Shown: positions 17,220 to 48,935 of the stretch, in pieces
Layout of the letters: every line of letters begins with the position of its first letter
How positions within the stretch are numbered: position 1 is the stretch's first letter
Source: Candidatus Kapaibacterium sp.
Lineage (GTDB): Bacteria; Bacteroidota; Ignavibacteria; Kapaibacteriales; UBA4661
NCBI GenBank assembly: GCA_025455065.1
Contig: JALONG010000036.1
Span: 1 to 48,935, forward strand
DNA length: 48,935 nt
Direction: 5' to 3'
The notes under the pieces: model-generated
The model's database searches: none
Told to the model about the DNA's origin: nothing
Seen by the model: only the letters and a program-made list of their open reading frames with translations
Position numbers and translations under genes: made by a program

Positions 17220-18611
17220 TTACTGCCAATGAAACAAACAAGGCGGAATAAGCAGCAGCAACGCCAACAGCATTAACACAAGTTGCAGCGGCAGCACCCA
17301 TTTTGCCCATTTTTCCCAAGGGATATTTGCCAGAGACAGCACACCAACGGTGATTGCGGAAGTCGGAATGATGATATTGGTGAACTCGCCGAATTGAAAC
17401 GCAAGAATGGCAGTTTGCCGCGTAACGCCCGTTAAATCCGCAAGTGGAGCCATAATCGGCATCGTGAGCGCGGCTTGTCCCGTACCGGAATGAATAAAAA
17501 AGTTTATCACCGATTGAATCACAAACATCTTTTGCGCGGCAAATATTGGGCTTGCCGACTCCACAAAGGGTGCAAGCGCATAGAGCATCGTGTCAATGAT
17601 GTGCGCATCTTTCGCAACGACCATTGTTGCTCGTGCTAAGGCGATAATGAGCGCCGTTGAAACAAGGTCTTTTGCACCATGCAGAAAAGCGGCAACAAAT
17701 TCATCGGCACTCAAACGCCCCACAACACCAACAACAATGCCCATCACAAGGAACAATGCCGCAATTTCTTCGATGTACCATTTGTACTGAATTACACCAA
17801 AAATCATCACACCAAGCGCTGCGAGAAATATCCACAGCACGATTTTATGCGTTCCGGTCATGCTCGTAAATTTATCGAAGTCGCCAAAATCAAGGTTTTT
17901 CCTGCGCTCTAGGTCATCAGCATAAATCGGACTCAGTTCCGGCTTTGCTTTGATGCGGTTTGCGTACCACATCACAAAAGCAATCGCGGGGATATTCGCA
18001 ATCGTCCAAACAAGTAGCCGATATTCCAAACCCGAATACGGCGGCAAGCCCGCAATTCCTTGTGCTATCGCCACATTAAAGGGATTCAAAAACGCTCCGG
18101 CGAAACCGATTTGTACGCCGATAAATGGTATCGCAACACCCACAAGCGAGTCGTAACCAAGAGCCAAAGCAAGTGGCACAAAAATAAGTACAAACGGAAT
18201 TGCCTCCTCGTTCATGCCAAAGGTCGCTCCGCCGACGGAGAACAGCAGCATAAAAAGCGGGATAAGCGCCGCACGCACAAATGGTGAGCGAGCGTGTGCT
18301 TTGGCGATAGATTTTATCAGTGCGTCAATGGCTTCAGTTTTTTGTAGCACCGAAAATGCGCCGCCCACAATCAACACAAAACCGATAATCATTGCCGCTT
18401 CCACAAAACCCTTGATTGGCGCGGTCATCAGAGATCCAAATCCTTGCGGATTATTTTTGATGTAATGAAACGAACCCGGTACAATAACCGTGCGCCCGTT
18501 TACTTGCGCCGTCGCATACTCGCCGCCCGGAACAATCCATGTCAAAGCGGTTATAAGAACGAGAAGCGAAAAAATCAAAATAAAGGTGTTAGGAAGTTTC
18601 AGTTTTTTCAT
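17220..18611 (-). CDS. YfcC-family (C4-dicarboxylate/basic amino acid antiporter-like) transporter
   Basis: 463 aa, about 12 hydrophobic segments, of the YfcC/DcuC-like superfamily. Conserved pieces include TWIVPGGEY near the N-terminus, the GATFGMNEEAIPFV loop, the FAGAFLNPFNVAIAQGIAGLPPYSG region and the late SGTGQAALTMPIMAPL segment. Members import or exchange C4-dicarboxylates, short-chain acids or basic amino acids; the substrate here is unknown. I placed the start at the ATG at 18611 (MKKLKLP), because upstream codons to 18695 are encoded by a repeated ATTCGTG-type filler element. The gene stands alone, about 200 bp from the next minus-strand gene. Confidence 0.85.
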   Translation of the reverse strand: MKKLKLPNTFILIFSLLVLITALTWIVPGGEYATAQVNGRTVIVPGSFHYIKNNPQGFGSLMTAPIKGFVEAAMIIGFVLIVGGAFSVLQKTEAIDALIKSIAKAHARSPFVRAALIPLFMLLFSVGGATFGMNEEAIPFVLIFVPLALALGYDSLVGVAIPFIGVQIGFAGAFLNPFNVAIAQGIAGLPPYSGLEYRLLVWTIANIPAIAFVMWYANRIKAKPELSPIYADDLERRKNLDFGDFDKFTSMTGTHKIVLWIFLAALGVMIFGVIQYKWYIEEIAALFLVMGIVVGVVGRLSADEFVAAFLHGAKDLVSTALIIALARATMVVAKDAHIIDTMLYALAPFVESASPIFAAQKMFVIQSVINFFIHSGTGQAALTMPIMAPLADLTGVTRQTAILAFQFGEFTNIIIPTSAITVGVLSLANIPWEKWAKWVLPLQLVLMLLALLLLIPPCLFHWQ

Positions 18612-18655
18612 TTCAGGCGACGGGAAAAATGGGAGAAAATTGGTTAGAATAATTG

Positions 18656-18770
18656 CCCACGAATCGCACAAATCCTCACGAATCAGGGCTATCATCTGGA
18701 AATTTTTTCATTGATGTAGAATGAATATCCTATACCAATGCTTCGTGTCAATTCGTGCAATTCGTGGATG
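18656..18770. repeat. Paired ATTCGTG filler element, copy 1
   Basis: The left arm 18656-18684 (CCCACGAATCGCAC type) and right arm 18741-18770 (ATTCGTGCAATTCGTGGATG type) are inverted relative to each other with about 56 bp between. The same arrangement recurs at 26453-26561. It sits just upstream of the YfcC-family gene. Confidence 0.7.
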
Positions 18771-18806: not shown

Positions 18807-19574
18807 TCAATCTACACGAATTGGCTTTCGCAGCGACATCGTTGTGCCAATGGTAATCACACCGACATAATACCCGCTTGCAACCTTGTAACCCTCATCA
18901 TTCCTATTGTTCCAAACGTGCGTATATTCACCTTGTGCTTGAAAGCCTTGATACAAACGTCGTACAAGTGCGGCTTGGTCGGAGAAAATGCTGACATTTA
19001 CTTGTGCCGCTTCCTCAAGCCGATACCGCAGCATCGGTGTCAAATCTTCCTGAAAAAGCCCACGAAGGTTGATATTGCTTGGTTCAAACAGCCCCGGCAG
19101 CGTTGAAAATTCTTTCACACCCGGAATACTGAAGGAGCGGCTTATGTCCTCTTTGTAGCGTCGAATTTCCGGCATTTCTTTCGCTGAAACTAGCGATTGC
19201 ACATCGACGGTTTCCCTTGCAAGTTCGATGAGAGAGCGCTTTCTGTCAGGCTTGGAAAGCACATCGGCAAAAACTTGACGGGCATCAATGCAAAAACGCA
19301 GCGATGGAGAAAGCGGCACAGACAGTGCTTGGTAAAAATGTCGGTCTTGTTCGCTGGTGAAAGGGTACTCACCGGGTGCAGTTGTTCCGAGTAGTCCTGA
19401 TGCGCCTTTTGTGCGTGCAATGTTTATGCTATCGCAGAGTTGCAGGAATGATTTTGCGGAATCTTGCCGAATCGGTAATTGTCCCTGCGCAAATGCCGCA
19501 AACTGGAGTGTAGCAGGCGCTGTTGCGAGCAGCAAATATGCGCAAAAGCGGGGAATTGACGCGAAAAAATTCAT
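18807..19574 (-). CDS. Secreted protein with FlgD-like C-terminal domain
   Basis: 255 aa from the ATG at 19574 (a TTG at 19589 is an alternative). A signal peptide ends near AFAQG (about 30). The middle is not recognised. The last 75 residues read VNVSIFSDQAALVRRL, YTHVWNNRNDEGYKVASGYY and RKPIRVD, which matches the FlgD Ig-like fold that commonly sits at the C-terminus of proteins sorted by the type IX secretion system in Bacteroidota, Ignavibacteria and relatives. It is probably exported and surface-attached. Function of the N-terminal part is unknown. Confidence 0.72.
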   Translation of the reverse strand: MNFFASIPRFCAYLLLATAPATLQFAAFAQGQLPIRQDSAKSFLQLCDSINIARTKGASGLLGTTAPGEYPFTSEQDRHFYQALSVPLSPSLRFCIDARQVFADVLSKPDRKRSLIELARETVDVQSLVSAKEMPEIRRYKEDISRSFSIPGVKEFSTLPGLFEPSNINLRGLFQEDLTPMLRYRLEEAAQVNVSIFSDQAALVRRLYQGFQAQGEYTHVWNNRNDEGYKVASGYYVGVITIGTTMSLRKPIRVD

Positions 19575-19652
19575 TGTTGAAATACCCAAAAGTGACGTAA
19601 AGGGAGGTCATTTCCTAAAGACACATCTGGGCGTATTTCTTTGCGCACAGTG

Positions 19653-19712: not shown

Positions 19713-20879
19713 CTAACGACTTATCGGCTCATGCAAAAAATTCTGCTCTCGAATAACTTCCAGCGCAATATCGGCGGATTTTTGGAGGTCTTCGAGGTAA
19801 ATAAATTCCGTGTTCGCGTGAGGATTTTGAGCGCCGATGCCTATATTTACTGATTTGATGCCGCGCCGATTGAACGAATTTGCATCGCTTCCACCCCACG
19901 AAACGTAAGGATTTGGCTTCAAACCTGCCTTTTCAATCGCACGGCTGATTTCTTGAAACACGCGGTCTTCCGGTTTAATCAAATACGGCGTAAAATCCCA
20001 CCGCGCATTAAACTCAAGCCCTGCACCCACTTCTGCGGCTGCGGCTTCAAACGTCGCTTGAATTTTTTTCGCTAACTGCTCGACTAATTCCAAATTCATA
20101 GAACGAATCTCGCCTTCGATGGTTGTCTGTGCGGGAACGACATTGACCGCTTCGCCGCCGTGAATCATGCCCACGTTCACCGTCGTCGTGTTGTCCACGC
20201 GACCAATCGGAATAGCACTAATCGCCTTTGCCGCCGCAACGATAGCATTGATGCCCTTTTCCGGCGCTATGCCCGAATGGGATGCTTTGCCCAAAAACGT
20301 CGCTTTGAAGGCAATCGCTCCGCAGGATTCACACACAAAATTGCCCGGACGCATGGAAGAATCGAACACAAACGCCATTTCTACTTCTTTGCGAAGCGGA
20401 ATGTTCATTGAACCGTCCAACGTGGTTTCTTCGCAGGTCGTGAAGGCAATCGTGAAGCCGCGTGTGGGCAGATTTTCTTTCACAATTTTTTCCAGCGTAT
20501 AAAGCAAAATCGTCACTCCGGCGCGATTATCCACACCCAACGCCGTTGTGCCGTCCGACGTGATTTTTTCCTCATCCACAACAACCTTCGTGTCAATCGT
20601 CGGGCGCGGCGTGTCCATATGAGCGGTCATGATAAAATCACCGCCACCTGCCACAGGACACAGGATATTGCCTGCATCGCCGTCCCACTTCGTGAACGTG
20701 TTGTCTTCGTAAGAATTCAGCCCCAAGCGGCTGACAAAATTGTGAATATAATCCGCCATCGGGCGCTCTTTGCCCGAAAGCGCAGGAATCACCGTTACTT
20801 CACGGAAAATCTCGATAATACGAGGGTCTATGACCGTTTGGGTATGGTGTTTTTCATATACTTCTGTTGCTGTCATCAC
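19713..20879 (-). CDS. M20-family metallopeptidase (PepT-like)
   Basis: 388 aa, with no signal peptide. Metal ligands of the M20 family are present: His87 and Asp89 in AHMDTP, bridging Asp117 in GVDNRAG, the catalytic Glu150/Glu151 pair in CEETTL, Asp173 in FDSSMRPG and His354 in QNPHAN; the lid domain (about 190-300) contains the conserved His201 in KASHSGI. It resembles tripeptidase T-like aminopeptidases of the cytoplasm. It follows two cyanophycin-synthetase homologues and a cyanophycinase on the same strand, so it could hydrolyse the dipeptides that cyanophycinase releases, but that is inference from context; a 50-bp filler gap separates it from the upstream gene. Confidence 0.87.
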   Translation of the reverse strand: MMTATEVYEKHHTQTVIDPRIIEIFREVTVIPALSGKERPMADYIHNFVSRLGLNSYEDNTFTKWDGDAGNILCPVAGGGDFIMTAHMDTPRPTIDTKVVVDEEKITSDGTTALGVDNRAGVTILLYTLEKIVKENLPTRGFTIAFTTCEETTLDGSMNIPLRKEVEMAFVFDSSMRPGNFVCESCGAIAFKATFLGKASHSGIAPEKGINAIVAAAKAISAIPIGRVDNTTTVNVGMIHGGEAVNVVPAQTTIEGEIRSMNLELVEQLAKKIQATFEAAAAEVGAGLEFNARWDFTPYLIKPEDRVFQEISRAIEKAGLKPNPYVSWGGSDANSFNRRGIKSVNIGIGAQNPHANTEFIYLEDLQKSADIALEVIREQNFLHEPISR

Positions 20880-20884
20880 ACACT

Positions 20885-20929
20885 TCTCGGTTTTTAGTTG
20901 TTTGTTGTTAGTTGTTAGTTTTTGGTCGG
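20885..20929. repeat. Simple-sequence filler between peptidase and CphA-like genes
   Basis: The gap consists of TTTTTAGTTG, TTGTTAGTTG and TTTTTGGTCGG units, like the run at 9141-9240. No promoter or terminator is apparent. Confidence 0.55.
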
Positions 20930-23038
20930 TTAATGGAAGAGGCTTTCTTTTTCGGTGGCAAAAAGTCGCTCAACCGTGTTTTCAAGCCATGTTCGTACCT
21001 TGTACTTCGATATGCCGAATGCGAGCAACGTAGAAGCAAGAGCCAGTACAAGTTCTTTGTCCAGCGTGGTTTCAAGCGCGATTCCGCGCACGAAAGGCGA
21101 TTCTTGCTTGCCTTCGAGCAGCGTCATTGTGCCATTTTCTAAAACGAAGGCTTTTCCACCACGTGAGCAATGGAGCGCTAACTGAGGATTTGTGCGGTGT
21201 GTGGCGAAAAATATCGTTTCGTGGTCGTACCGCTCCACCGAGCGCGTGATAAGCGGATTATTCGCATTCAAAACAGCTGTTCCACCCGCTACCAAATACT
21301 CCGCCACCAACGCCTGCGCATGAGCCGCATCCTCACTTGTTTCAAGGGCATTATCGTTAGCATCACCACTATCGTTCTCGGCTATGTCAGCAATATTCAG
21401 CACCACGCCCACATCGGCACGGTCATAGCATAAACCCTCGCTGGTAATGGTTTCAAGTGGGATTTCGAGAACAGCGCAATCAATTTCCGGTTCGGTCAAT
21501 ATCGTCAAAATACCGCTTTCGCCCCTCAGTGTCAAGGTTTCGTGCCGAATCGAAGCACTTCCGGGTGAAGCGCTCCCGACGGTAAACCCAAGTTCCGTTA
21601 ATGCGTCATCCAGCATGGTACGCAGGAAATCTCCACCTAAACCCGCCGAAATAGCAACAATCGGCACTCGTGCGGGTTTGTCAGAGGGAAATACCGCAGA
21701 AAGCAGGTTTTGTCCGATGTTGTAGGTTTTTCCGCTTGTGGGCAAGCGGTAGAGCCGTGTTTCGGGTTGAAGCGAACAATGCAACGTTGTCGCCGAAGCA
21801 TTGTCAAGCAATGGACGATTCAGCGACGGCGTAGTAATGCGGAGTTCAGCCAATTCATAGCCAAAATGTTCGCGGATAGTTCCCGCAATCTGCTCAAAAA
21901 GCCACTTGTTTTCGTGACAAACTTCGTCGTTCATTTCAATCACCGCACCGCCATTTTCCGGCGTTCCTTCGCGTTTGAGCCGCACAACAAAGCCTTTCGG
22001 CAAAACAGCTTCCGGCGCAAAACCAAATTCCGACAACACAGCACGGCTTTCGTCATCAAGCACGACAGGCTGCAAGCGTCCCGAAGTCCGGCGTAAGGCA
22101 TTGAGCGCCTCAACAAGCGCTTCAATACTCGCCTCACCATTCCCTTCCACAATCGGCGGCGCAAGTTTCAGCACCGACGGAGCAGCGCCATTCAAGAGCA
22201 GCACACGATACGCATTTGTCAAGACAGCTTCGGGAGCCGCATCCTTGCTTGCTTTGAAAGGAGCGCTAGTGCCGAAGGGCAGATGTAAGGTTCGCAGACA
22301 CGTGCGCGTTATTTCCTGTTCCAAAGCGCTTACCTGCTCGGAACTTTGCAATACGGTATTATGTCTTGTGTGCAGGGATTTGGGCAAGAGCAAACCCGCT
22401 TCAAAGCGTCGTGAATACTTGCCCGTGCCAAGCCGAAAGGATTCCACATCCGCCTCGCGCAAGCGCACAAGCGGGAGACGGCGGCGACGTGCTTCGGTAA
22501 GAATCTCCTGCGTCGAAAAACTTGGAACAAATTCTGCCGCAATGCCGCGTAATTGCCGGATAATCGGCGAAATTTCAACAGATTCTTTTAACAGCAGCGC
22601 ATTGACGATGTGCAGTGCTGCCTTTGCCGCAACGATTCCCGCCTCTTCGTAGAAATAGCTAAAAACTACGTTGTACACGCCTTTCTGTGAGGTTCTGCGG
22701 GTTTTTCCGTAGGTGACATCCATTCCCGCCAAAACCTGCAATTCCAGCGCAATATGCTCCAAAACGTGTCCCAAAAGCGTTCCTTCGCTCATGCGCCGAA
22801 AAAAGCCTCCGGGAGCGCCCACCGAGCAGTGATGCTCATAGAGCGAGGGCAAAAGCGCCTTCAGTGCATCGAAAAAGCCGTCAATCGTGTTGGTAAATAC
22901 TTCGTCGTATTCCCCCAAATCCAGCGTCAAACGCACCACTGGCGACCACGCAAAGGCATTTGCGCCGCGTACAAGGCTGATGTCAAGCGCTTTGAGCGGA
23001 TGCGAGGAAGTGAGATATGGTGCGGGTTGGAGAGACAT
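20930..23038 (-). CDS. Cyanophycin-synthetase homologue with lost ATP sites (pseudo-CphA)
   Basis: 702 aa, against roughly 870-900 for CphA1. The N-domain (about 15-165) is well kept and includes GHVLEHIALELQ: His91, Glu94 and His95 form the HxxEH motif described as a zinc-peptidase site in the N-domain of some CphA1 enzymes, with candidate third ligands Glu131/Glu132. The ATP-grasp domain is truncated: the GTGKYSRRFEAG entry and the YRVLLLNG strand remain, but the KPLxGNxGxG lysine loop and the ExNxxPG metal site are gone. The Mur-ligase domain (about 456-690) has its P-loop replaced by SAGLGGDFL (464-472). It cannot be a normal synthetase. It may provide structure or primers to the ATP-grasp-competent homologue encoded upstream. 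Confidence 0.85.
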   Translation of the reverse strand: MSLQPAPYLTSSHPLKALDISLVRGANAFAWSPVVRLTLDLGEYDEVFTNTIDGFFDALKALLPSLYEHHCSVGAPGGFFRRMSEGTLLGHVLEHIALELQVLAGMDVTYGKTRRTSQKGVYNVVFSYFYEEAGIVAAKAALHIVNALLLKESVEISPIIRQLRGIAAEFVPSFSTQEILTEARRRRLPLVRLREADVESFRLGTGKYSRRFEAGLLLPKSLHTRHNTVLQSSEQVSALEQEITRTCLRTLHLPFGTSAPFKASKDAAPEAVLTNAYRVLLLNGAAPSVLKLAPPIVEGNGEASIEALVEALNALRRTSGRLQPVVLDDESRAVLSEFGFAPEAVLPKGFVVRLKREGTPENGGAVIEMNDEVCHENKWLFEQIAGTIREHFGYELAELRITTPSLNRPLLDNASATTLHCSLQPETRLYRLPTSGKTYNIGQNLLSAVFPSDKPARVPIVAISAGLGGDFLRTMLDDALTELGFTVGSASPGSASIRHETLTLRGESGILTILTEPEIDCAVLEIPLETITSEGLCYDRADVGVVLNIADIAENDSGDANDNALETSEDAAHAQALVAEYLVAGGTAVLNANNPLITRSVERYDHETIFFATHRTNPQLALHCSRGGKAFVLENGTMTLLEGKQESPFVRGIALETTLDKELVLALASTLLAFGISKYKVRTWLENTVERLFATEKESLFH

Positions 23039-23107
23039 GGCGTTTATAGTTTGATATTACCTCTGTACCATACAAAAAACCTTATAGGCAGTATAAAATC
23101 TAGCATT

Positions 23108-23239
23108 CGTAGCACAGACATTCCTGTCTGTGCCACCAATACGCGAAGCGTATCATCTTCAAAAGACAGTCGTTCATAATTATTCCGTTTGTTATGCCTA
23201 ACGGCATCAAGGGACACAGACAAGAATGTCTGTGCTACG
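23108..23239. repeat. Paired ACAGACATTC palindrome element, copy 1
   Basis: The left arm 23108-23134 (GTAGCACAGACATTCCTG..) and right arm 23212-23239 (..AAGAATGTCTGTGCTAC) form an inverted pair about 80 bp apart; each arm is itself a near-palindrome. It lies between the two synthetase-like genes. A second pair is at 44802-44953 and single palindromes are at 48071 and 48886. The arrangement recalls bacterial REP/BIME elements. Confidence 0.8.
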
Positions 23240-23291
23240 GAAGCCAGTATTTACAACGCTTTCAGAGTTTTATATGGTGTATAAGGCGAGT

Positions 23292-25226
23292 TTACTCATA
23301 CTTCGTCAAAAGTCCCGCCAAAAGCGGTTGCAATGCCTTGAAAATACCGCCGTCTCTGCCTTCTTCCTTCGTGAAGGTAACAGCGCGGGGTTCAGCCAAA
23401 CCGCCGCCCATGATGACGATGTACCCGTCGTGAACTTGCATCACATAACCATCGGGCTGCACGTCGCGCTTCAAGATTTCTTCGGCATAGTGCGGGTCTT
23501 CAAGAATGACCACATCTGCGCCTTCGTGGAATGTGCCGTAATCAAAAATATCATCTTTGGTGTGGCGAAAAACGGCAAATTCTAACTTGGGATTGCGCAG
23601 CATAATTTCAACGTTTTTGCTGTGGCGCTTGTGCTTGTGGAAAAATTCTCCGTTGAAGGACACGCCGTCTTTGAGCAATGCGCCGTATTCCACATCGGGC
23701 TTGATTTCCTTCAATGCCGCATAAATACTTGCGGAAAGTTCGGGAGAAATTTTATTTCCGGCGATAATCGGGATTCGCTCCGAGCGGTCTTTCGGGAAAT
23801 TCGCCCGCATAATCAGCCCCGGAACGTCTATTGGTGAGCCTTCTGCGGGTGCGATGTGCATAAACACGCCCGGACCGGCATTGATTTCGATTATCGCAAA
23901 ATTGCCCGCATCCCAAGGTTTGCTAATGTCTTCCGCCAAAACGTCAATGCCCAAGCACATTACTTTGAAAAATTTTGCAATATCGTCCACCATTTTCACA
24001 TTTTTCGGGTGCATTTTTTCGGTTACATTCACCGACACACCGCCCACCGAAACATTCGCCACACGGCGCAAATACACGCGCTCACCCATCGGAGGCACGG
24101 AAGAAAGCGTTAAATTTTGCAGTGCGATGTATTCTTTTAACCCGTCATCTACGGTGATTTTTGCAAGCGGCGACCGGGCATTGTCGCGGCGTTCAGGGCG
24201 CTTGTTTTCGAGTTCGATGAGCGCTTCAATCGTGTCTTTGCCATTACCTTCCACATACGCCGGAACACGCTGCAAGGCAGCCACAAAGCGCCCGTTCACG
24301 GCAAGTAGGCGGTGGTCTTTGCCATAGACTTGCTGTTCGGCGATTGCGCCGTCAAAACTTGCTCCCGCTTCCCGTGCCGCATCCACAATACGCCGGAAGG
24401 CAGTCAGCGCCTCGTCTTTGGTTTGGATGTCGGTCGTCACGCCTTGCCCTTTGTGTCCCGCAAGCGGCTTGACAACAAGCGGGAAGCCCAATTCTTCAAT
24501 CTCTTCCAAAAGTTCGTCTTCGGTCATGCAATTATTCCCAATCGGCGTAGGGAAGCCACAATCCAGCAAAAATTCTTTCACTGCATCTTTTTGCGTCGTA
24601 AACTCCGTATCTTTGATGCTGTCGGTATGAAAAACCGTCGAGCGCCCACGGACTTGCTTCTTTCCATAGCCCCATTGGAAATCACCCTCGCTACGCAGAA
24701 AAAACATCGGTATTTTGCGTTTGATGCCCGCTTCGACAATCGAAGAAATCGTTGGACCGCCTTGAATGGTGCGGTCGAACTGTTTTTGGAGTTTCAGAAA
24801 ACTCGTGTGAAAATCGAATGTTTTTTCGCTGCTAAGTGCCGCAAACCACTCCGCAACAAGCGCTGCTGCGTCTTCGGCGACATATTCATCCAAATACTGC
24901 ACCGCGACGATGTAGGAATCCCCGTCAAAACTGACACTGCTTTCGCTCACGGGAAGGTTGATTTCCATGCGGAGCGTTTCAATGAGTGTCGCCACAAAAA
25001 GGTCTATAACGCGCTCAAATTGGCGCTTGGCGAGTTGGAGAAATTCTGCCGACACAAGCGGCTGATAATACTCCACCGTGCGCCCCGCCGGAGCGATGTA
25101 CAGGTTAAACACCACCGCAGGACGCGCCAGATAATAGCTCGGTCCTTTGTAAGAGTAAAATTTTGAGACGCTGAAATCCTCGTGCGTCAGCTGCGGAAGC
25201 GGTTCGTGTGTGGTGTCCTTGGTCAT
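23292..25226 (-). CDS. Cyanophycin-synthetase-like ATP-grasp ligase lacking a Mur-ligase P-loop
   Basis: 644 aa from the ATG at 25226 (the frame runs to 25328 but overlaps the cyanophycinase end). The N-domain (about 15-200) is divergent and has no HxxEH motif. The ATP-grasp domain (about 200-480) looks complete: Lys253 in VVKPLAGHKGQGV, Glu297, the RLLAVNGRFVAALQRVPAYV strand (306-324), VYLRRVANVSVGG and the metal-binding Glu447/Asn449 in IIEINAGPG. In CphA1 this domain extends the aspartate backbone; in CphA2 it joins beta-Asp-Arg units. The C-terminal Mur-ligase remnant (about 485-640) has IPIIAGNKISPEL in place of the P-loop, so side-chain arginine addition is not expected. It lies 52 bp after the cyanophycinase gene and 253 bp before the second homologue. 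Confidence 0.87.
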   Translation of the reverse strand: MTKDTTHEPLPQLTHEDFSVSKFYSYKGPSYYLARPAVVFNLYIAPAGRTVEYYQPLVSAEFLQLAKRQFERVIDLFVATLIETLRMEINLPVSESSVSFDGDSYIVAVQYLDEYVAEDAAALVAEWFAALSSEKTFDFHTSFLKLQKQFDRTIQGGPTISSIVEAGIKRKIPMFFLRSEGDFQWGYGKKQVRGRSTVFHTDSIKDTEFTTQKDAVKEFLLDCGFPTPIGNNCMTEDELLEEIEELGFPLVVKPLAGHKGQGVTTDIQTKDEALTAFRRIVDAAREAGASFDGAIAEQQVYGKDHRLLAVNGRFVAALQRVPAYVEGNGKDTIEALIELENKRPERRDNARSPLAKITVDDGLKEYIALQNLTLSSVPPMGERVYLRRVANVSVGGVSVNVTEKMHPKNVKMVDDIAKFFKVMCLGIDVLAEDISKPWDAGNFAIIEINAGPGVFMHIAPAEGSPIDVPGLIMRANFPKDRSERIPIIAGNKISPELSASIYAALKEIKPDVEYGALLKDGVSFNGEFFHKHKRHSKNVEIMLRNPKLEFAVFRHTKDDIFDYGTFHEGADVVILEDPHYAEEILKRDVQPDGYVMQVHDGYIVIMGGGLAEPRAVTFTKEEGRDGGIFKALQPLLAGLLTKYE

Positions 25227-25278
25227 TGGGCGTTGTTGGTTGAAAATGAGGAAGAATGCTGTTTGTATATTGATGGTA

Positions 25279-26187
25279 TTATTCCACCATTGTCCACGAA
25301 GGCAGGTGAAATCTTGCTCCGGCAGCAAGAAAACTCAGCGACACGCCATGAATACTAAATCGGTCTTTACGCTGAAGATGCTGATAGTTACTAGACGTTA
25401 TGCCTGAAGCAGCCATAAATGTAACAAATTCACTGCCAATAACAAGGGCATTTCCCGAAGAATCCACAGAAAGTGCTGTATCTTCATCTACACCAATAGC
25501 ATAGCGATTTACCTCACGAGCGAGAATTTGTGCGAGACGTGGAATGCGATTGCGCTGCAAAAAGTGCGTATCCACCGTCACAAACGGCAGAAAACCAAAA
25601 CCTTCGGTAATGTTCACCGCATCTTTGCGCAAACCTTGGTCGTCGCCGTCAAAAAGCATCGTGTCGCTCACAGCAGCCGCTCCGGCACTTGTTCCGGCAA
25701 CAAGCGCTCCTGCGGCGTGTTTTGCAGCAATTATCTGAAATGCCTGTGAGCCTTTGAATACCTCCACAAGCCGCACTTGGTCGCCTCCGGTGAAAAAAAA
25801 TGCGTCTGCTTCCTGAAGCATAGCCAGATACTCCGGCGTGTCGGCTTCACCCACGTAGCGCGGCGCAATAACGTGTGCCTTAGGTATGCCCATCGCTAAA
25901 AAAATTTCGGCGTATTCATTCCCAAGTTCTTTGCCGTAGGTGCTTGCGGTGGGGATAATGGCGATACACTGCGCCGATGCTGTTGCCGTGACGTATTGCA
26001 ACACCGCTTTTGCTTTGATTTTATCTTCGTTGCCCCCAATGATAACAAGTTTTCCTTTTGTCGAAGTCCATTCCATGCTGCTCGTAGCCTTTCGTCGTTG
26101 TGGTACAAGGTGATTGCTCTTTTTCCCTGATTCTGCCTTGTGTTCAGGCGGAGTGAATAGCGAAAAAAGCGTCCGAAGAATATTCAT
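25279..26187 (-). CDS. cphB: Cyanophycinase (peptidase S51)
   Basis: 302 aa. Family S51 serine peptidase: nucleophile Ser167 in GTSAGAAA, His208 in DTHFLQRNR and Glu235 in GVDEDTAL match the triad of characterised cyanophycinase. KGKLVIIGGNED (44-55) and FFFTGGDQVRL are also typical. Such enzymes cut the multi-Arg-poly-Asp polymer into beta-Asp-Arg dipeptides in the cytoplasm. An alternative start at Met38 (26076) would remove a basic N-terminal extension that is not needed for the fold. It is the first gene of the cluster with two synthetase-like genes, indicating that polymer synthesis and breakdown are encoded together. Confidence 0.9.
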   Translation of the reverse strand: MNILRTLFSLFTPPEHKAESGKKSNHLVPQRRKATSSMEWTSTKGKLVIIGGNEDKIKAKAVLQYVTATASAQCIAIIPTASTYGKELGNEYAEIFLAMGIPKAHVIAPRYVGEADTPEYLAMLQEADAFFFTGGDQVRLVEVFKGSQAFQIIAAKHAAGALVAGTSAGAAAVSDTMLFDGDDQGLRKDAVNITEGFGFLPFVTVDTHFLQRNRIPRLAQILAREVNRYAIGVDEDTALSVDSSGNALVIGSEFVTFMAASGITSSNYQHLQRKDRFSIHGVSLSFLAAGARFHLPSWTMVE

Positions 26188-26605
26188 TTATGTTTGAGTG
26201 AAATGAGAGCGAGAATTATTTCGCTCACAGCGAAAATACATACTTTTGCAAAATATACAAAATTTTCCACAATTTTTTGCGAAATTGTTATGATTTGTGC
26301 TGAAATTCGCAACATTTGACATTTGGCTTCTTGAATTATTTTTTGTGCAATGCCGCCCGGCGTTGTAATTTTGCGGGGTGTAACCACGTAATTCCGATAA
26401 CCACGTAATACCGTGTTTTACTTCGGCAACCAATCACATCAACGAAAAGAATGTCCACGAATCGCACGAATTGCCACGAATCCCCGATTGATACGGTAAT
26501 TTTTCACCCAAGAACACCCGCTAGACTTGCTATTCGTGAAGATTCGTGCAATTCGTGGATACCATGTTCCGAAACTTGCCCATTTTTTCTCATCCTTCCA
26601 ACACT
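26188..26605. other. Divergent intergenic region between cyanophycinase and purH
   Basis: 418 bp, with no gene. Close to the cyanophycinase start lie two overlapping inverted repeats: GAGCGA/TCGCTC (26207-26212 with 26221-26226) and TTTCGCT/AGCGAAA (26219-26225 with 26229-26235). The middle is AT-rich. The purH side contains the paired ATTCGTG filler (26453-26561). I could not place a clear promoter for either gene. Confidence 0.6.
26453..26561. repeat. Paired ATTCGTG filler element, copy 2
   Basis: The left arm 26453-26481 (GTCCACGAATCGCACGAATT type) and right arm 26532-26561 (ATTCGTGCAATTCGTGGATA type) are inverted copies about 50 bp apart, the same design as 18656-18770. It ends 44 bp before the purH start. 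Confidence 0.75.
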
Positions 26606-28213
26606 ATGATTCATCCTTCTACCCACGTTATTCGCCGAGCGCTCATCAGCGTTTCCGACAAAACAGGTATTGTTAGTTTTGCGCGGAAACTCGCCGAGCG
26701 CGATATTCAAATCATCTCTACCGGAGGAACGGCTGAAGAGCTGAAAAAAGCAGGTGTTCCGGTCATCAGCATTGCGAATGTGACGGGGTTCGATGAAATT
26801 CTGGACGGGCGGGTAAAAACGCTGCATCCCGCTATCCATGCGGGTTTGTTGGCAGTGCTGGATAATCCGCATCATGTTCAGCAAATGGAAGCAAATATGA
26901 TTCAGTCCATTGATTTAGTCGTGGTGAATCTTTACCCCTTTGAAAAAACCTTAGCAAACAGCGCGTCCACGCATGAGGATATTGTCGAAAACATTGACAT
27001 TGGCGGTCCGGCGATGATTCGAGCATCAGCGAAAAATTACCGTTGGACGGCAATTCTCACCAATCCTGAACGGTATGATGAGGTTTTGAGCGCCCTGCAC
27101 GACCACGACGGCACTGTGCCGGAGGAATTGCGGTTGTCGCTTGCCCACGAAGCATTTGCGCACACAGCGTATTACGATGGCATGATTGCAAGCTACTTTG
27201 CAGGAAAAGACACTGCGCAACACCAGTCTTCATCAGCGCTGCTGCCCGAAACGCTCCCTATTGCCCTTCGCAAAGACCAAGATTTGCGGTATGGTGAAAA
27301 CCCGCATCAAATCGCGGCTCTTTACAAACAATCCGGCACGGGAAGCGCTTACGGTGATATTTTCGATTATCTGCACGGCAAAGAACTTTCCTACAACAAT
27401 CTTTTGGACATTGACGCGGCAGCAAAACTCGCTTTGGAGTTTCGCGGTGTGGCGGGTTTGGGCGAAACGGCGGTTATTATCAAACACACCAATCCTTGCG
27501 GTGTCGGTTCGGCTTCGACGCTGAAAGAGGCGTATTTGAAGGCGTTTGCGTGTGATACCACGTCAGCCTTCGGTGGCATCATCGCGCTTACAAGCGAACT
27601 TGACCTCGCAACGGCACAAACGATTGACGAAATTTTTACGGAAGTCGTCATCGCGCCGAGTTATGCGGCGGATGCACTCGAACTCCTCAAGCAAAAGAAA
27701 AATCGCCGTTTGATGACGGTGAACTACGATGCTCTCAAAGCCGCACTGCGTCTGGAAGTCAAAGCAATCGCGGGAGGAATGTTGCTCCAAAGCGCCGACA
27801 CACTGCTTTGGAACGCGGAAGAATTGGACGTTGTGACCAAACGCAAGCCCTCCGACGACGAGCGCAAAGCGCTGGAATACGCATGGCGCATAGCAAAGCA
27901 CGTAAAATCAAACACGATTGTTTATGCCGCTTCTGACCGTGCGTTGGCGATAGGTGCGGGGCAGATGTCGCGGGTGGATTCGGCGGCAATCGCAGCACGA
28001 AAAGCCGAAGCAGCAGGAATCAGCCTTGCGGGGTCGGCGGTCGCGTCCGATGCCTTTTTTCCCTTCCCCGACGGGCTGTTGGAAACCGTGAAAGCAGGCG
28101 CAACGGCGGTTATTCAGCCGGGCGGTTCGGTGCGTGATGCGGAAGTAATTGCGGCGGCAGATGAACATGGAATAACGATGATGTTTACGGGTGTGCGGCA
28201 TTTTCGGCATTAA
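26606..28213 (+). CDS. purH: Bifunctional AICAR transformylase/IMP cyclohydrolase PurH
   Basis: 535 aa, typical length. The N-terminal IMP cyclohydrolase (MGS-like) domain carries [18 protein letters not shown] and [10 protein letters not shown]; the C-terminal transformylase domain carries [17 protein letters not shown], the late HVKSNTIVY and [10 protein letters not shown], and ends TGVRHFRH. It catalyses the last two steps of purine synthesis. I took the ATG at 26606, since codons upstream to 26546 are encoded by filler repeat. It is a single gene; tRNA-Asp follows 138 bp later. Confidence 0.96.
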
Positions 28214-28778: not shown

Positions 28779-31685
28779 ATGACGACAACAACAGAAACAA
28801 AGCAGTTTCAATACGAAATACAGACCTATCAAGAAGATTGTGTACGCAACATTATCAGTCTTTTTGAAAGCCTTCGACAAAAAGAACCATTTACCGATGT
28901 GCTAACGGCACATCATAAAAAGCATCAATACACTTTTCCCGTTCAGGACACCAAAAATATTGACGTAATGATGGAAACGGGAACGGGAAAAACGTTCACG
29001 TTTATTAAAACCATTTTTGAACTCAGCAGAAATTTTGGCTATAAAAAGTTCATTATCCTTGTGCCTACTGTTCCGATTCGTGAAGGAACAAAAACAAACC
29101 TTGAGGACACCAAAGAGTATTTTAAGAGTTTGTATGCTAACGAAAGAGAGAAAGAAATTGAAACCTTTGTGTATGAAGGCGGTAACATTTCTGCGGTGAG
29201 GCAGTTTATTGGCACTTCGCATTTATCCGTCTTGGTAATGACACCAAGTTCGTTTAGCAGTCAGGATAACATACTCAACCGCCCCTTACAGCAAGACATG
29301 AACGCACCTGAATTGTTTACTCACAATCAATCTCCCCCAAAATCATATCTGGAGTGCCTGAAACGCTTGAAGCCGATTGTGATAATGGACGAACCGCACC
29401 GTTTTGACGGTAATGCGTTCAAAACCTATTTTGAAGGTTTTGATAATTACTGTTTGCGGTTTGGCGCAACATTCCCCAAAAAGCGAGACAGTCTGCCGTT
29501 ATCAAACGTGGCATATCTGTTAGACAGCATCTCTTCGTTCCGGCAGAATTTAGTAAAGAAGATTGTGGTTTATACGCAAGATGTCATAGAAAACACCGAT
29601 ACGCTCATTGGGATTGACGAGAGTAAAGCCATCGTCCACACGCTGGCAAACGGTGTCGTTGTAAGACGAGAATTAAGCAAAGGCGGGGTTTTTAATGGGA
29701 AAAGTATCAAAAAAATCAACAAAGACAAGATTGTTTTAATGGACGATACCATTGAAAAGGTTGATTATTCTGTGTCAGACGAATCCTTGCGGAAGATGAT
29801 TGAAGATACCATCAAGATTCATTTTGAGAAAGAGCAATTACTGTTTGAGCAAGGAATAAAAGCGCTCACATTGTTTTTTATGGAAAGCGACACGAGTTTG
29901 TTTCGCGGCGACAATCCAAAAATTAAAACTATTTTTGAAGAAGAATACACCAAGCAACGTAAGGAAATTCTCACCAAACTTGACCAAACAAGCGCATACT
30001 ACCAATACCTGCAAAACGATTTTGACAGCGACAACACTTTGCAAGTTCACAAAGGATATTTTTCAGGCGATAGAGGAAACGCCGACGAAAAAGTAAAAGC
30101 GGGCGTGGATGAAATTTTGAAGGACAAAAAGAAACTCCTTTCGTTTGAAAGTCCTTCGCGGTTCATTTTTTCCATTTGGGCGTTGCAAGAAGGCTGGGAC
30201 AACCCGAATGTTTTTACGATATGCAAACTCTCCAATCAAGGAAGCGACATATCAAAACTTCAACAAATTGGGCGCGGCTTGCGGATATGCGTCAATCAAG
30301 ATTTGCAGCGAAATACCCTTAAAAATCTGAATGACGACCAAGAACAATTTTGGAGCATCAACAATCTTGATGTTGTCGTCTCAAGCAAAGAACAGGGCTT
30401 CGTGGAAGCAATTCAAAACGAAATTCTCAGCAATTCGTTCTTGATTGCTACCACCTTTACAGAGCAAGAACTCAAAATTGCACTCAAAGAAAAATCAAAT
30501 TTTGACGACCAAACCGTGCGCAGTCTTTATAGAATGCTCGAAAACAACGAGATGATTATCTACAAGGCAACGGTAAACGGGCTTGATGTTTTTGAAAAAT
30601 CTCCCGACTTTGCCAAACTCCTCAAAGAACAAAACTTGTCCCAAGAACAAGTGAAAGCCCTAGAAAACCTCTTTGCGACAGACGCAAGCACATACATCCA
30701 AAAAGCCGAGAAGAAAAAAGAGAAAAAGAACGTGTTCATCAAATCAACGCACCTGCAAGAGTTTCAACGTCTGTGGAACGCTATCAACAAAAACGCTTTT
30801 TATGTTCTGGACACCTTAAGCGAAGAGCAAGAAAACCAACTTGTTCGCAACATTGCAACGGAAATTGAAGCACTGAACATTGAAGAAATCCTCTTGCAAA
30901 CGATTCGCGCTGAACTCAACGTGAATAAGATTGGCAAAGAAGGCGCAATAACGGAAACATCAACCGACCGAGTTTCCTACAAAAGCAAACTTGATTATTT
31001 GGAACTTGTTCGCACACTTTCCAACAATACCAAAACGCCGCTTGGCTTTGTGGTGAAAATCTTCAATGCACTCAGCAATAATTTCAAAACAAAAATGCTC
31101 TCGAACAATCCCGAACAAGCGCAACGGGAAATTGCCGCAATCATCCGCAAAAACCTCGTGGCAATGCTCAAAGCAGCCATTACCTATCACGGCATGAGCG
31201 GAACAGCGCTGCCAAACGTGTTCAAAACCGAAGGCGGAAAAACGTATTTGGACAAAGGAAGCACCGGCAAATTTCAAAAAGATATTACCGGCGATTTTTC
31301 CTTGAAAGCAAAATGGGTGTTTGAAGACGTGATTGAATACGACAGCGATTTTGAATTGGAAATCGTCGAGCAAGACCCTGACATAAACAGCATTGAAATT
31401 TTCGCCAAGCTGCCGCGCCTGAAGATTAAAACTCCGTTAGGCGACTACAACCCTGATTTTTGCTATGCCGTCAAAAGCGCCGAAGGCAAGAAAATTTTCC
31501 TTGTCGTCGAAGCAAAAGGCTACAAATCTTCTACTGCAATTCCCGACGATGAAAAGACGAAAATTGATTTTGCCAAAAAGTATTTTGCGGCACTGAGCGA
31601 ACAGTACAACAACGACGCAATAACCATTTCCTTCAAAGAGCGCATCAATACGACGCAATTAGCGCAGTTAATCAACAACGCATAA
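28779..31685 (+). CDS. res: Type III restriction endonuclease, Res subunit
   Basis: 968 aa. The superfamily 2 ATPase core has Walker A METGTGKT (65-72) and the DEPH motif in MDEPHRFDG (about 203-211), with IGRGLRI as motif VI (about 500). The C-terminal nuclease has a PD-ExK arrangement: NPDF (about 890-893) and VVEAKGYK (about 908-915). Type III Res proteins work in complex with Mod to translocate and cut unmodified DNA. It starts about 300 bp inside the tRNA-Asp island and is followed by mod after 15 bp; most type III operons have mod first, so the order is reversed. Confidence 0.93.
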   Translation: MTTTTETKQFQYEIQTYQEDCVRNIISLFESLRQKEPFTDVLTAHHKKHQYTFPVQDTKNIDVMMETGTGKTFTFIKTIFELSRNFGYKKFIILVPTVPIREGTKTNLEDTKEYFKSLYANEREKEIETFVYEGGNISAVRQFIGTSHLSVLVMTPSSFSSQDNILNRPLQQDMNAPELFTHNQSPPKSYLECLKRLKPIVIMDEPHRFDGNAFKTYFEGFDNYCLRFGATFPKKRDSLPLSNVAYLLDSISSFRQNLVKKIVVYTQDVIENTDTLIGIDESKAIVHTLANGVVVRRELSKGGVFNGKSIKKINKDKIVLMDDTIEKVDYSVSDESLRKMIEDTIKIHFEKEQLLFEQGIKALTLFFMESDTSLFRGDNPKIKTIFEEEYTKQRKEILTKLDQTSAYYQYLQNDFDSDNTLQVHKGYFSGDRGNADEKVKAGVDEILKDKKKLLSFESPSRFIFSIWALQEGWDNPNVFTICKLSNQGSDISKLQQIGRGLRICVNQDLQRNTLKNLNDDQEQFWSINNLDVVVSSKEQGFVEAIQNEILSNSFLIATTFTEQELKIALKEKSNFDDQTVRSLYRMLENNEMIIYKATVNGLDVFEKSPDFAKLLKEQNLSQEQVKALENLFATDASTYIQKAEKKKEKKNVFIKSTHLQEFQRLWNAINKNAFYVLDTLSEEQENQLVRNIATEIEALNIEEILLQTIRAELNVNKIGKEGAITETSTDRVSYKSKLDYLELVRTLSNNTKTPLGFVVKIFNALSNNFKTKMLSNNPEQAQREIAAIIRKNLVAMLKAAITYHGMSGTALPNVFKTEGGKTYLDKGSTGKFQKDITGDFSLKAKWVFEDVIEYDSDFELEIVEQDPDINSIEIFAKLPRLKIKTPLGDYNPDFCYAVKSAEGKKIFLVVEAKGYKSSTAIPDDEKTKIDFAKKYFAALSEQYNNDAITISFKERINTTQLAQLINNA

Positions 31686-31700
31686 CACCGACTTACCTCT

Positions 31701-33620
31701 ATGACACAAGAAGAATTTATCAACGCAGGTTTTACCGTTTTGGGAACGAACGATACAGAAAACGCGCTTTTGCGCTTTCTGAGGGAACACTATCCCGCCG
31801 TTGTGCGTGATAACGAAGTGAATCTGCAAGAACTGAAAGCCGCTCTGGGCTTGCCCATTGACGAAAAAGTAAACGGCTACGGCTTAAATTTTGTCGGCAG
31901 AAACGTCGCCAGAGCTAAATACGCTCAAAAAACTACGAAGGAACTACGCCTCAATACCGCTCTCAGCAAGGAGTTTGACACGACGCAAAACTTGGTCTTG
32001 AAAGGCGACAATCTGGACAGCCTCAAAATCCTCAAAAGCCATTACAGCAGCAAAATCAAGTGCATTTACATTGACCCGCCTTACAACACCACGAGCGATG
32101 AGTTTGTCTATCCCGACAAATTTGATAAAGAAGAGGCGGAAGTGCTGGGCTTCCAAAACCTCAGCGACGATGATTTTGCCCGTATGGAGTTTAGTTTCAA
32201 AACTAAAAAAAGCCACAACGGTTGGCTTGCGTTCATGTACCCGCGACTGCTCTTGGCAAGAGATTTACTCTCGAAAGACGGTGTTATTTTTATCAGCATT
32301 GACGATAACGAACAAGCAAACTTGAAATTGCTTTGTGATGATGTGTTTGGGGAGGAGAATTTTGTGGCAAATTTTCAAATAAAAGCTAATCCAAGAGGCA
32401 GGCAATCTGATAGTAATGTAGCAACACTTCATGATTACCTTTTGTGTTATGGAAAAAATTTTGATTTTGTTGAGTTAAATGGAATTCCATTAACAGAAGA
32501 AGACATAGAAGAATTTGACCAGTCTGATGAAAACGGTAAGGCATGGCGTGAACTCGGTTTGCGACAAAGAGGTTCTGCTTCTTTAAGGTCGGATAGACCG
32601 GAAATGTTTTTCCCAATTTATGTAAACCCACAGGATTTATCGGTGAGTTTAGAAAAAACAAATTCGCACACTATACCAGTTATTCCAAAGAAATCTACAG
32701 GAGTGGAGGGTAGATGGATGTGGGGAATTGATAAGGTTAAACGAGAGAATAGTAGAATTTATGCAAGGCTAATAAAAAGAAGAAATGAATTTGACATTTT
32801 TATCAAAGATTACTTAGAGAGGAACGATGAAGTCCGAACAAAGAAGCCCAAATCAATGTGGGCTGAAAAGGATGTAAATACCGAAGCGGGCGGAAAGCTA
32901 GTGAAGTTACTTTTTGGATCAGCTGTATTTTCTTATCCTAAACCGATTGGACTAATTAAAAGAGTAATTTCCTTGATTGCAAATTCAGACGACATTATCC
33001 TCGACTTCTTCGCTGGCTCTGGCACAACAGGACACGCCGTCATGCAACTGAACGCCGAAGACGGCGGCAAGCGCAAGTTTATTTTGTGCCAAAAAGACGA
33101 GCAAATAAAGGAAGACAAACCTGCATACAAGTTTTGTCTTGAACATGGCTTACCGCCTGTTATTTCCAGCATAACGATAGAGCGTTTACGCCGTGCGGGG
33201 GAGAAAATTGCCAAAGAAATCGAAGAGGCAAACACTAAAGAAGGACTCTTTGACGGCGATAAAAAACACGTTCCCGATGTTGGATTCAAAGTGTTTGACA
33301 GCGTAGAAGCACCAACGCTTGCCGTTGATGAAACGACGCTTCAAATAGCGATGATTGCGAATGATATTGACGCGATGAGCCGCATTTACAATATGATATT
33401 CACCGTTGGTTTAGACGAGCCGACGTGCGTTCCCGCCGTAGTTGTGGAAGATTGCATCTACAAGATTGGCAATCATTATTACATCACCAATTCAGACAGA
33501 GTAAGCAAAGAGGATTTTGCAGAAGCGGTCAAAAGCGGCAAGGTGTTTATTGACGGTTGGACAGCGAGCCTGAACGGAACATTGCAGAATTACAAAGAAG
33601 ATGTGAAGATTATCTTTTGA
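31701..33620 (+). CDS. mod: Type III DNA methyltransferase, Mod subunit
   Basis: 639 aa. Catalytic motif IV DPPY (about 125-128) precedes the S-adenosylmethionine site FFAGSGTTGHA (about 435-445), the beta-class order of type III adenine-N6 methyltransferases. The DNA-recognition region lies between them; its coding sequence from about 32350 to 32990 is visibly more AT-rich than either flank, suggesting that the recognition domain was exchanged. It methylates one strand of an asymmetric site and provides specificity to Res. No simple-sequence tract suggesting phase variation was seen. It is the last gene of the island. Confidence 0.93.
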   Translation: MTQEEFINAGFTVLGTNDTENALLRFLREHYPAVVRDNEVNLQELKAALGLPIDEKVNGYGLNFVGRNVARAKYAQKTTKELRLNTALSKEFDTTQNLVLKGDNLDSLKILKSHYSSKIKCIYIDPPYNTTSDEFVYPDKFDKEEAEVLGFQNLSDDDFARMEFSFKTKKSHNGWLAFMYPRLLLARDLLSKDGVIFISIDDNEQANLKLLCDDVFGEENFVANFQIKANPRGRQSDSNVATLHDYLLCYGKNFDFVELNGIPLTEEDIEEFDQSDENGKAWRELGLRQRGSASLRSDRPEMFFPIYVNPQDLSVSLEKTNSHTIPVIPKKSTGVEGRWMWGIDKVKRENSRIYARLIKRRNEFDIFIKDYLERNDEVRTKKPKSMWAEKDVNTEAGGKLVKLLFGSAVFSYPKPIGLIKRVISLIANSDDIILDFFAGSGTTGHAVMQLNAEDGGKRKFILCQKDEQIKEDKPAYKFCLEHGLPPVISSITIERLRRAGEKIAKEIEEANTKEGLFDGDKKHVPDVGFKVFDSVEAPTLAVDETTLQIAMIANDIDAMSRIYNMIFTVGLDEPTCVPAVVVEDCIYKIGNHYYITNSDRVSKEDFAEAVKSGKVFIDGWTASLNGTLQNYKEDVKIIF

Positions 33621-44801: not shown

Positions 44802-44953
44802 CTTCGTAGCACAGACATTTCTGTCTGTGCCTTTAACGCTTCTGTGCCTTTAACGCTGCAAGGCGTAATACCGTAAAATTTTGAATTTACACGATTTGAA
44901 GATTATTCGCTTCGCTCATTTCGGACACAGACAAGAATGTCTGTGCTACGAAG
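44802..44953. repeat. Paired ACAGACATTC palindrome element, copy 2
   Basis: The left arm 44802-44831 (CTTCGTAGCACAGACATTTC..) and right arm 44923-44953 (..GAATGTCTGTGCTACGAAG) are inverted copies about 90 bp apart. Inside is a tandem duplication of TCTGTGCCTTTAACGCT. Same family as 23108-23239. Confidence 0.8.
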
Positions 44954-48836: not shown

Positions 48837-48935
48837 ATAATACCAATTTGAGTTGATAGCTGTGCAAAAAAAATCCGGCTTCAGCGGCACAGACATTCTT
48901 GTCTGTGCGAGTATTTATGCTGCTTCCAGAGAAAA
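48837..48935. repeat. 99-bp direct repeat, copy 2 (reaches the window edge)
   Basis: The second copy lies upstream of the DUF4230 start. Its right end contains the same minus-strand coding piece TTCTCTGGAAGCAGC found at the DUF4230 3' end, so a second, tandem DUF4230 gene may lie just outside the window. Confidence 0.85.

What the first reader, a model, noticed from the sequence alone, without database searches (positions are those of the whole stretch)
19713..26187. Cyanophycin-type locus built from two complementary, half-dead synthetase homologues
Seen: cyanophycinase with an intact Ser-His-Glu triad, a 644-aa homologue with an intact-looking ATP-grasp site but no HxxEH and no Mur P-loop, and a 702-aa homologue with HxxEH but no ATP-grasp metal/lysine motifs and no Mur P-loop, plus an M20 peptidase. 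Known: CphA1 combines an ATP-grasp domain (Asp addition), a Mur-ligase-like domain (Arg addition) and an N-domain that in some enzymes has a primer-generating peptidase site; CphA2 has one working ligase and polymerises beta-Asp-Arg. Inference: the activities have been split between two paralogues that may work as a hetero-oligomer, and since no Mur-type ligase remains, the polymer may be assembled from dipeptides or may not be standard cyanophycin.
Basis: partly seen in the sequence, partly recalled or inferred. Interest (0 to 1): 0.88.

Follow-up and report, generated by a model that had tools for sequence, protein, structure and literature searches.

The report
Two-gene cyanophycin synthetase in Kapaibacteria
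In a few uncultured Kapaibacteria, the gene for an enzyme that strings ready-made aspartate-arginine units into a nitrogen-storage polymer sits beside a gutted copy of the usual polymer-making enzyme that kept only its polymer-cutting, chain-starting site, so one natural machine seems to have been split into two proteins.

Summary
Partly confirmed. Three adjacent genes encode a cyanophycinase (CphB), a 645-aa ATP-grasp enzyme and a 702-aa CphA1-like protein (P702); an M20 peptidase follows. The 645-aa protein is not newly half-dead: it groups with cyanobacterial CphA2, the single-site beta-Asp-Arg polymerase, and keeps the main ATP-grasp residues. P702 is a gutted CphA1: ATP-grasp lid, both Mg ligands and Mur P-loop are gone, but the N-domain residues H57, C59, R70, H79, E82 and H83 of SuCphA1 are kept in 4 of 4 orthologues. 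The pair occurs in 4 of 10 family genomes, under purifying selection strongest on the N domain; two relatives have CphB-CphA2 alone. In relative G399 M20 lies directly beside purH, so CphB-CphA2-P702 looks like a gain/loss cassette and M20 a neighbour. No CphA1 was found in the genome; its Mur-type hits are MurC, D, E, F and FolC. Best reading: CphA2 polymerises dipeptides of unknown origin and P702 makes primers in trans, as an engineered CphA1 with dead G and M sites does (PMC9262961). Function is inferred, not shown. New variant of a known kind.

The parts
25279..26187 (-). CphB-type cyanophycinase, first gene of the CphB-CphA2-P702 unit (true start may lie inside the ORF)
   Evidence: TIGR02069 199.4 bits, PF03575; GTSAGA/DTHF/DEDTA motifs; 49-70% identical orthologues beside CphA2 in G337, G398, G275, G396
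23292..25229 (-). CphA2-type beta-Asp-Arg polymerase (645 aa): ATP-grasp site kept, Mur and N-domain sites absent
   Evidence: phmmer 434 and 421 bits to 7ta5 and 8fxh against at most 240 for CphA1 chains; titles CphA2; grouping 100/100; residues
23039..23291 (.). 253-bp gap between CphA2 and P702 carrying two inverted copies of a 24-bp dispersed repeat
   Evidence: gap length
20930..23038 (-). P702: gutted CphA1 with an intact-looking N-domain metallopeptidase site and dead G and M domains
   Evidence: phmmer to CphA1 in two pieces, N 22-216 and 276-645; PF18921 only; residues; orthologues in G337, G397, G398
22754..22768 (-). HxxEH of P702 (residues 91-95), with C71 19 residues upstream
   Evidence: regex; invariant in 4 of 4 orthologues
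19713..20879 (-). M20 / PepT-like peptidase, neighbour kept also without the unit
   Evidence: PF07687/PF01546, TIGR01883 below its cut-off; in 7 of 10 family genomes; adjacent to purH in G399
18807..19589 (-). FlgD_ig-domain protein, neighbour
   Evidence: PF13860; also beside M20 in G399
17220..18695 (-). DcuC/YfcC-family transporter, neighbour
   Evidence: PF03606 339 bits; directly after M20 in G337 and G398
26546..28213 (+). purH, other flank of the unit
   Evidence: PF01808 373 bits in window and in G399

Best explanation
A naturally split cyanophycin synthetase. Shown by sequence: the first synthetase gene is a CphA2-type enzyme whose one ligase site (ATP-grasp G domain) looks intact and whose Mur and N-domain sites are absent; the second, P702, is a CphA1 relative in which both ligase sites are destroyed while the N-domain HxxEH site is kept. 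[quoted passage not shown] P702 cuts the first chains into short primers in trans, which speeds up synthesis; its dead G and M parts stay as the body that keeps the N domain folded and soluble; CphB returns dipeptides from the polymer. Because no CphA1 and no spare Mur-type ligase was found in the genome, the dipeptides must come from outside the cell or from an unidentified enzyme.
For: CphA2 identity: 434/421 bits against 240, CphA2-plus-Kapaibacteria split 100/100 with a branch of 2.95, E215, K220, K261, R309, R323, N394, D431, E450 kept, R458 replaced by Phe as in 7ta5. P702: K220/K261/H267 region has no counterpart, D431R, E450H, N394T, P-loop GTNGKTT to AGLGGDF; H57, C59, R70, H79, E82, H83 kept in 4 of 4, R100 to Lys. 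In SuCphA1 H57A, C59A, R70A, H79A, E82Q impaired primer-independent synthesis and R100A did not; SuCphA1 with dead G, dead M or both gave primer-independent synthesis in trans; the isolated N domain was insoluble until a loop that touches the M domain was mutated (PMC9262961, passages). Pair in 4 of 10 family genomes; rough dN/dS about 0.09 for the N domain, 0.18-0.25 for G and M where dS is finite and under 2.2 (G397, G398), 0.34-0.40 for the linker. No CphA1 in the genome; Mur-type hits are MurC, MurD, MurE, MurF, FolC.
Against: Two genus members (G275, G396) keep CphB-CphA2 without P702, so P702 is not obligatory. P702 loses the SuCphA1 positions E90, A96 and G97, of which E90 (side chain), A96 and G97 (backbone) touch the polymer (PMC9262961). 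dS is saturated, so ratios are rough. Whether this CphA2 needs primers is unknown. No source of beta-Asp-Arg was found. The P702 model is poor (mean pLDDT 40.7), so no geometry of the metal site was checked. No expression or activity data.
Confidence: 0.5

Rival explanations
1. P702 is a partner or regulator of CphA2 (hetero-oligomer, polymer anchor, granule protein), and primer making is not its main role.
For: The G and M remnants are also under constraint although catalytically dead; genes are adjacent in 4 of 4 genomes with P702. Structural roles of catalytically idle domains are known for CphA (PMC9262961 and PMC9427784, passages).
Against: Constraint is strongest exactly on the N domain (75-76% identity against 54-65% for G and M) and the peptidase residues are invariant.
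Confidence: 0.25
2. P702 is an endo-cyanophycinase that works in mobilisation of the store, with CphB, and has little to do with synthesis.
For: The CphA1 N domain itself cuts cyanophycin (PMC9262961, passages); the gene sits with CphB.
Against: CphB already covers degradation and is present without P702 in G275 and G396; the same N-domain residues are those tied to primer making in SuCphA1.
Confidence: 0.13
3. The unit makes or handles another polymer or substrate than standard cyanophycin.
For: CphA2 here occurs without any detected CphA1 or Arg-adding ligase; identity to solved CphA2 is only 27-29% in the aligned part of the model.
Against: CphA2-type residues and GHKG loop are shared with cyanobacterial CphA2 and a cyanophycinase above its cut-off is next door.
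Confidence: 0.08
4. P702 is a decaying CphA1 remnant with no function.
For: Both ligase sites are lost and the linker evolves fast; it is absent in G275, G396 and G399.
Against: Open over about 700 codons in 4 genomes at 59-63% identity with rough dN/dS near 0.2.
Confidence: 0.04

Closest known systems
Cyanophycin synthetase 2 (CphA2; 7ta5 Gloeothece citriformis, 8fxh Stanieria)
   Same: Three-domain ATP-grasp enzyme of about 640 aa with one ligase site, dead N site, no Mur P-loop; 645-aa window protein groups with it
   Different: Found here in a Kapaibacteria genus with no CphA1 detected; the held papers call CphA2 a cyanobacterial enzyme (PMC9262961, PMC10206079, passages). In 4 genomes it has a P702 partner
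CphA1 with active N domain (SuCphA1, TeCphA1)
   Same: P702 N domain with Cx19HxxEH, and residual G-core and M-core sequence
   Different: P702 lacks the ATP-grasp lid, Mg ligands, Mur P-loop and the C-terminal part
Engineered SuCphA1 with dead G and M sites (H267A; D585A H586A)
   Same: Same logic: no ligase activity, N-domain peptidase kept, helps another synthetase in trans (PMC9262961, passages)
   Different: Laboratory construct; P702 is natural and its partner is a CphA2, not a CphA1
N-domain plus Mur ligase proteins without ATP-grasp ('Mur ligase family protein', D. deserti and L. adelaidensis plasmids)
   Same: Also CphA1 N domain detached from a working G domain; one lies beside cyanophycinase and isoaspartyl peptidase genes
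   Different: Mur domains match Pfam there and are lost in P702; no CphA2 seen in the 13-kb stretches

Membership tests
CphA2 | Closer to cyanobacterial CphA2 than to CphA1 | tested here: met
   434/421 bits against at most 240; 8 CphA2-type rows split from 34 CphA1-type rows at 100/100, only two cyanobacterial rows, and the tool warns of long branches
CphA2 | Working ATP-grasp site residues | tested here: met
   E215, K220, K261, R309, R323, N394, D431, E450 kept; His of the P-loop shifted by one (GHKG), as in 7ta5 and 8fxh
CphA2 | No Mur P-loop and no M lid | tested here: met
   GTNGKTT replaced by KISPELS; protein ends at 645 aa like CphA2, M lid absence judged from length only
CphA2 | N-domain HxxEH absent | tested here: met
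   No HxxEH in 8 of 8 CphA2-type rows
CphA2 | Polymerises beta-Asp-Arg with ATP | not testable with these tools
   Needs biochemistry
CphA1 (for P702) | N domain with Cx19HxxEH | tested here: met
   4 of 4 P702; 23 of 33 CphA1-type comparison rows have the full motif
CphA1 (for P702) | Functional ATP-grasp site | tested here: not met
   Lid without counterpart, D431R, E450H, N394T
CphA1 (for P702) | Functional Mur-type site | tested here: not met
   P-loop AGLGGDF, T522P; no G.NGKT in 4 of 4
Cyanophycinase (CphB/S51) | Family score above the curated cut-off | tested here: met
   TIGR02069 199.4 against 126.6
Isoaspartyl dipeptidase (for M20) | Linkage to cyanophycin genes | tested here: not met
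   0 of 20 Bacteroidota CphA1 loci have it nearby; kept without the unit in G399, G275, G396; activity not testable here

The most novel reading that the evidence does not exclude
These Kapaibacteria have a two-subunit cyanophycin synthase that cannot make its own building block: it lives on beta-Asp-Arg dipeptides released by other microbes, re-polymerises them with an orphan CphA2, and uses a gutted CphA1 as a dedicated primer-making endopeptidase subunit. The polymer store is thus separated from amino acid supply, a scavenging form of nitrogen storage.
Probability: 0.27. Interest if true: 0.82.

Novelty: new variant of a known kind. Interest (0 to 1): 0.62.

Why it matters
CphA2 has been treated as a cyanobacterial salvage enzyme. 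A CphA2 with no CphA1 in the genome raises a direct question: where does beta-Asp-Arg come from? P702 is a natural counterpart of a laboratory construct (CphA1 with dead ligase sites that makes primers in trans), so it allows a clean test of the primer model, and it shows how a multi-site polymerase can be divided into a ligase subunit and a priming subunit. The pair could also be of use for polymer production from supplied dipeptides.

Tried and rejected
M20 as the missing isoaspartyl dipeptidase of Bacteroidota: considered because PMC10206079 (passages) says it is undiscovered; weakened, since M20 is near 0 of 20 CphA1 loci, is kept without the unit, and the genome has an Asparaginase_2 (IaaA-type) protein (9 of 10 family genomes).

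L005 (604 aa) as a stand-alone Arg-adding ligase: rejected, it is MurE. Of the 16 TIGR02068 matches, three are the pair; seven fall in MurC, MurD, MurE, MurF and FolC; two are AccC; four short ATP-grasp matches (C83:28544, C30, C83:78032, C53) were not typed.

Structure prediction: P702 (3 rows) mean pLDDT 40.7 and CphA2 (6 rows) 55.8; used only for entry titles and for the N-domain fold of P702 (7lgq Z 20.8, rmsd 3.1 over 190, against 12.7 for CphA2). No complex was predicted.

Genome-contig scan used two short patterns and found 5 loci only; absence elsewhere cannot be concluded. Phyla other than the window's were not sampled by the genome search. Plasmid searches found no CphA2-type hit at 80% coverage and no P702-like pair was sought there beyond the listed rows.

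650-670-aa ATP-grasp proteins of family f26 (L055-L065): about 30% identical over the ATP-grasp region only, left aside. Paper searches with no useful hit.

Full report
What is there. The window lies in a 5.6-Mb, 99.5%-complete assembly of 131 contigs. On the minus strand run a cyanophycinase (25279-26187), a 645-aa ATP-grasp protein (23292-25229), a 702-aa CphA1-like protein here called P702 (20930-23038), an M20 peptidase, a FlgD-Ig protein and a DcuC/YfcC transporter. Named close relatives are MAGs titled Candidatus Kapaibacterium or Ignavibacteria bacterium; more exact taxonomy was not given.

The 645-aa protein is CphA2. phmmer against solved structures gives 434 bits for 7ta5 and 421 for 8fxh, against at most 240 for CphA1 chains; a later search printed the titles, cyanophycin synthetase 2 from Gloeothece citriformis and Stanieria sp. 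CphA2. In a tree of 42 rows, six CphA2-type proteins (five of this genus and L068, from a MAG labelled Rikenella) and the two cyanobacterial CphA2 form one side of a branch with 100/100 support (only two cyanobacterial rows, and the program warns about long branches). With TeCphA1 numbering from PMC9427784 (passages), it keeps E215, K220, K261, R309, R323, N394, D431 and E450; R458, which binds the substrate Asp in CphA1, is Phe as in 7ta5 (Tyr in 8fxh); the Mur P-loop is gone. None of 8 CphA2-type rows has HxxEH. So its 'missing' parts are the normal state of CphA2.

P702 is a gutted CphA1. It aligns to CphA1 in two pieces, residues 22-216 and 276-645, with the ATP-grasp lid segment between them unmatched. 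D431 is Arg, E450 His, N394 Thr, R323 Leu, and GTNGKTT is AGLGGDF; R309, R458 and E558 are kept. Pfam sees only the N-terminal cyanophycin-synthase domain (the same for two orthologues). All of H57, C59, R70, H79, E82 and H83 (SuCphA1 numbering) are kept in 4 of 4 orthologues; R100 is Lys; E90, A96 and G97 are changed. In PMC9262961 (passages) alanine or Gln mutants of the first five impaired primer-independent synthesis, R100A did not, and H83 is a zinc ligand. In an N-domain tree P702 forms its own group (98/94) within the larger side that holds the Cx19HxxEH-bearing CphA1s.

Conservation. In the 10 sampled genomes of the family, P702 occurs in 4 (G000, G337, G397, G398) and CphA2 without P702 in 2 (G275, G396). 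A class sample gives P702 orthologues in 4 of 391 genomes; CphA2-type proteins in 6 of 391 and CphA1-type proteins in 18 others, with no genome showing both at E 1e-30. A phylum sample gives CphA2-type in 3 of 395 and full-length P702 in 2 of 395, all in this genus. Identity between P702 orthologues is 75-76% in the N domain, 54-65% in G and M and 41-48% in the linker. Rough dN/dS against G397 and G398 is about 0.09 (N), 0.18-0.25 (G, M), 0.34-0.40 (linker), with dS saturated; against G337 dS is often not computable. CphA2 and M20 evolve more slowly. So P702 is under selection, though its body changes faster than its neighbours.

The unit. G337 and G398 have purH, CphB, CphA2, P702, M20 and DcuC in this order; G397 has CphA2-P702-M20 at a contig edge. 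In G399 M20 and FlgD-Ig lie directly beside purH, with about 330 bp between the blastn matches and no CphB, CphA2 or P702. G275 and G396 have CphB-CphA2 elsewhere and M20 alone. The recurring unit is therefore CphB-CphA2-P702, gained or lost as a block; M20, FlgD-Ig and DcuC are neighbours. In 20 CphA1 loci of the phylum CphB is near in 18, M20 and DcuC in 0.

Building block. A search of the own genome with the CphA model gave 16 matches, none over the cut-off. Apart from the pair, the Mur-type ones are MurC, MurD, MurE, MurF and FolC. No route to the Asp-Arg isopeptide was found. The genome has an Asparaginase_2 protein that could split dipeptides.

How it most likely works. CphA2 joins dipeptides. 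PMC9262961 (passages) reports that SuCphA1 with dead G, dead M or both made a primer-dependent CphA1 primer independent in trans, and that the isolated N domain was insoluble until a loop that touches the M domain was mutated. P702 has the same make-up by nature, and the second fact offers a reason why the dead G and M body is kept. I recall, from the abstract of the ACS Chem Biol 2022 paper on CphA2 and from no call, that Gloeothece CphA2 is primer dependent. The role of P702 as primer maker is thus inferred. Against it: relatives do without P702.

Print. Among 8 held papers with both CphA2 and cyanophycin, the two whose wording I saw call CphA2 cyanobacterial. Searches for Kapabacteria with cyanophycin, for pseudoenzymes, and for split or orphan forms gave no report of this pair; most subscription papers are not held.

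Verdict. The new points are CphA2 in a lineage without detected CphA1, and a priming subunit that stands alone.

Noticed in passing
window 23109-23132, 23215-23238, 44806-44829, 44926-44949, 48069-48092, 48884-48907: Dispersed 24-bp palindromic repeat GTAGCACAGACATTCNTGTCTGTG, 6 copies in the window against 0 expected, two of them inverted in the CphA2-P702 gap; a similar stretch matches near purH in G399.
   Followed up: partly
L124 2840-7969 (G171): A CphA1 gene interrupted by an IS66-family element: N domain on a 171-aa ORF, rest on a 777-aa ORF.
   Followed up: partly
L118 6019-8749: Legionella adelaidensis plasmid: N-domain plus Mur ligase protein without ATP-grasp, followed by cyanophycinase and isoaspartyl peptidase.
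   Followed up: partly
L057 8082-17659: Three 647-661-aa ATP-grasp proteins related to the CphA G domain within 10 kb in a family f26 genome; function unknown.
   Followed up: no
L110 5104-6885: A 593-aa ORF resembling the M part of P702 (24% over residues 506-644) lies near a full-length CphA1.
   Followed up: no
L068 387-2507: CphA2-type protein, 47% identical, in a cave MAG labelled Rikenella microfusus; the label looks doubtful.
   Followed up: partly
window 28779-33620: Type III restriction enzyme and DNA methylase gene pair next to purH.
   Followed up: no
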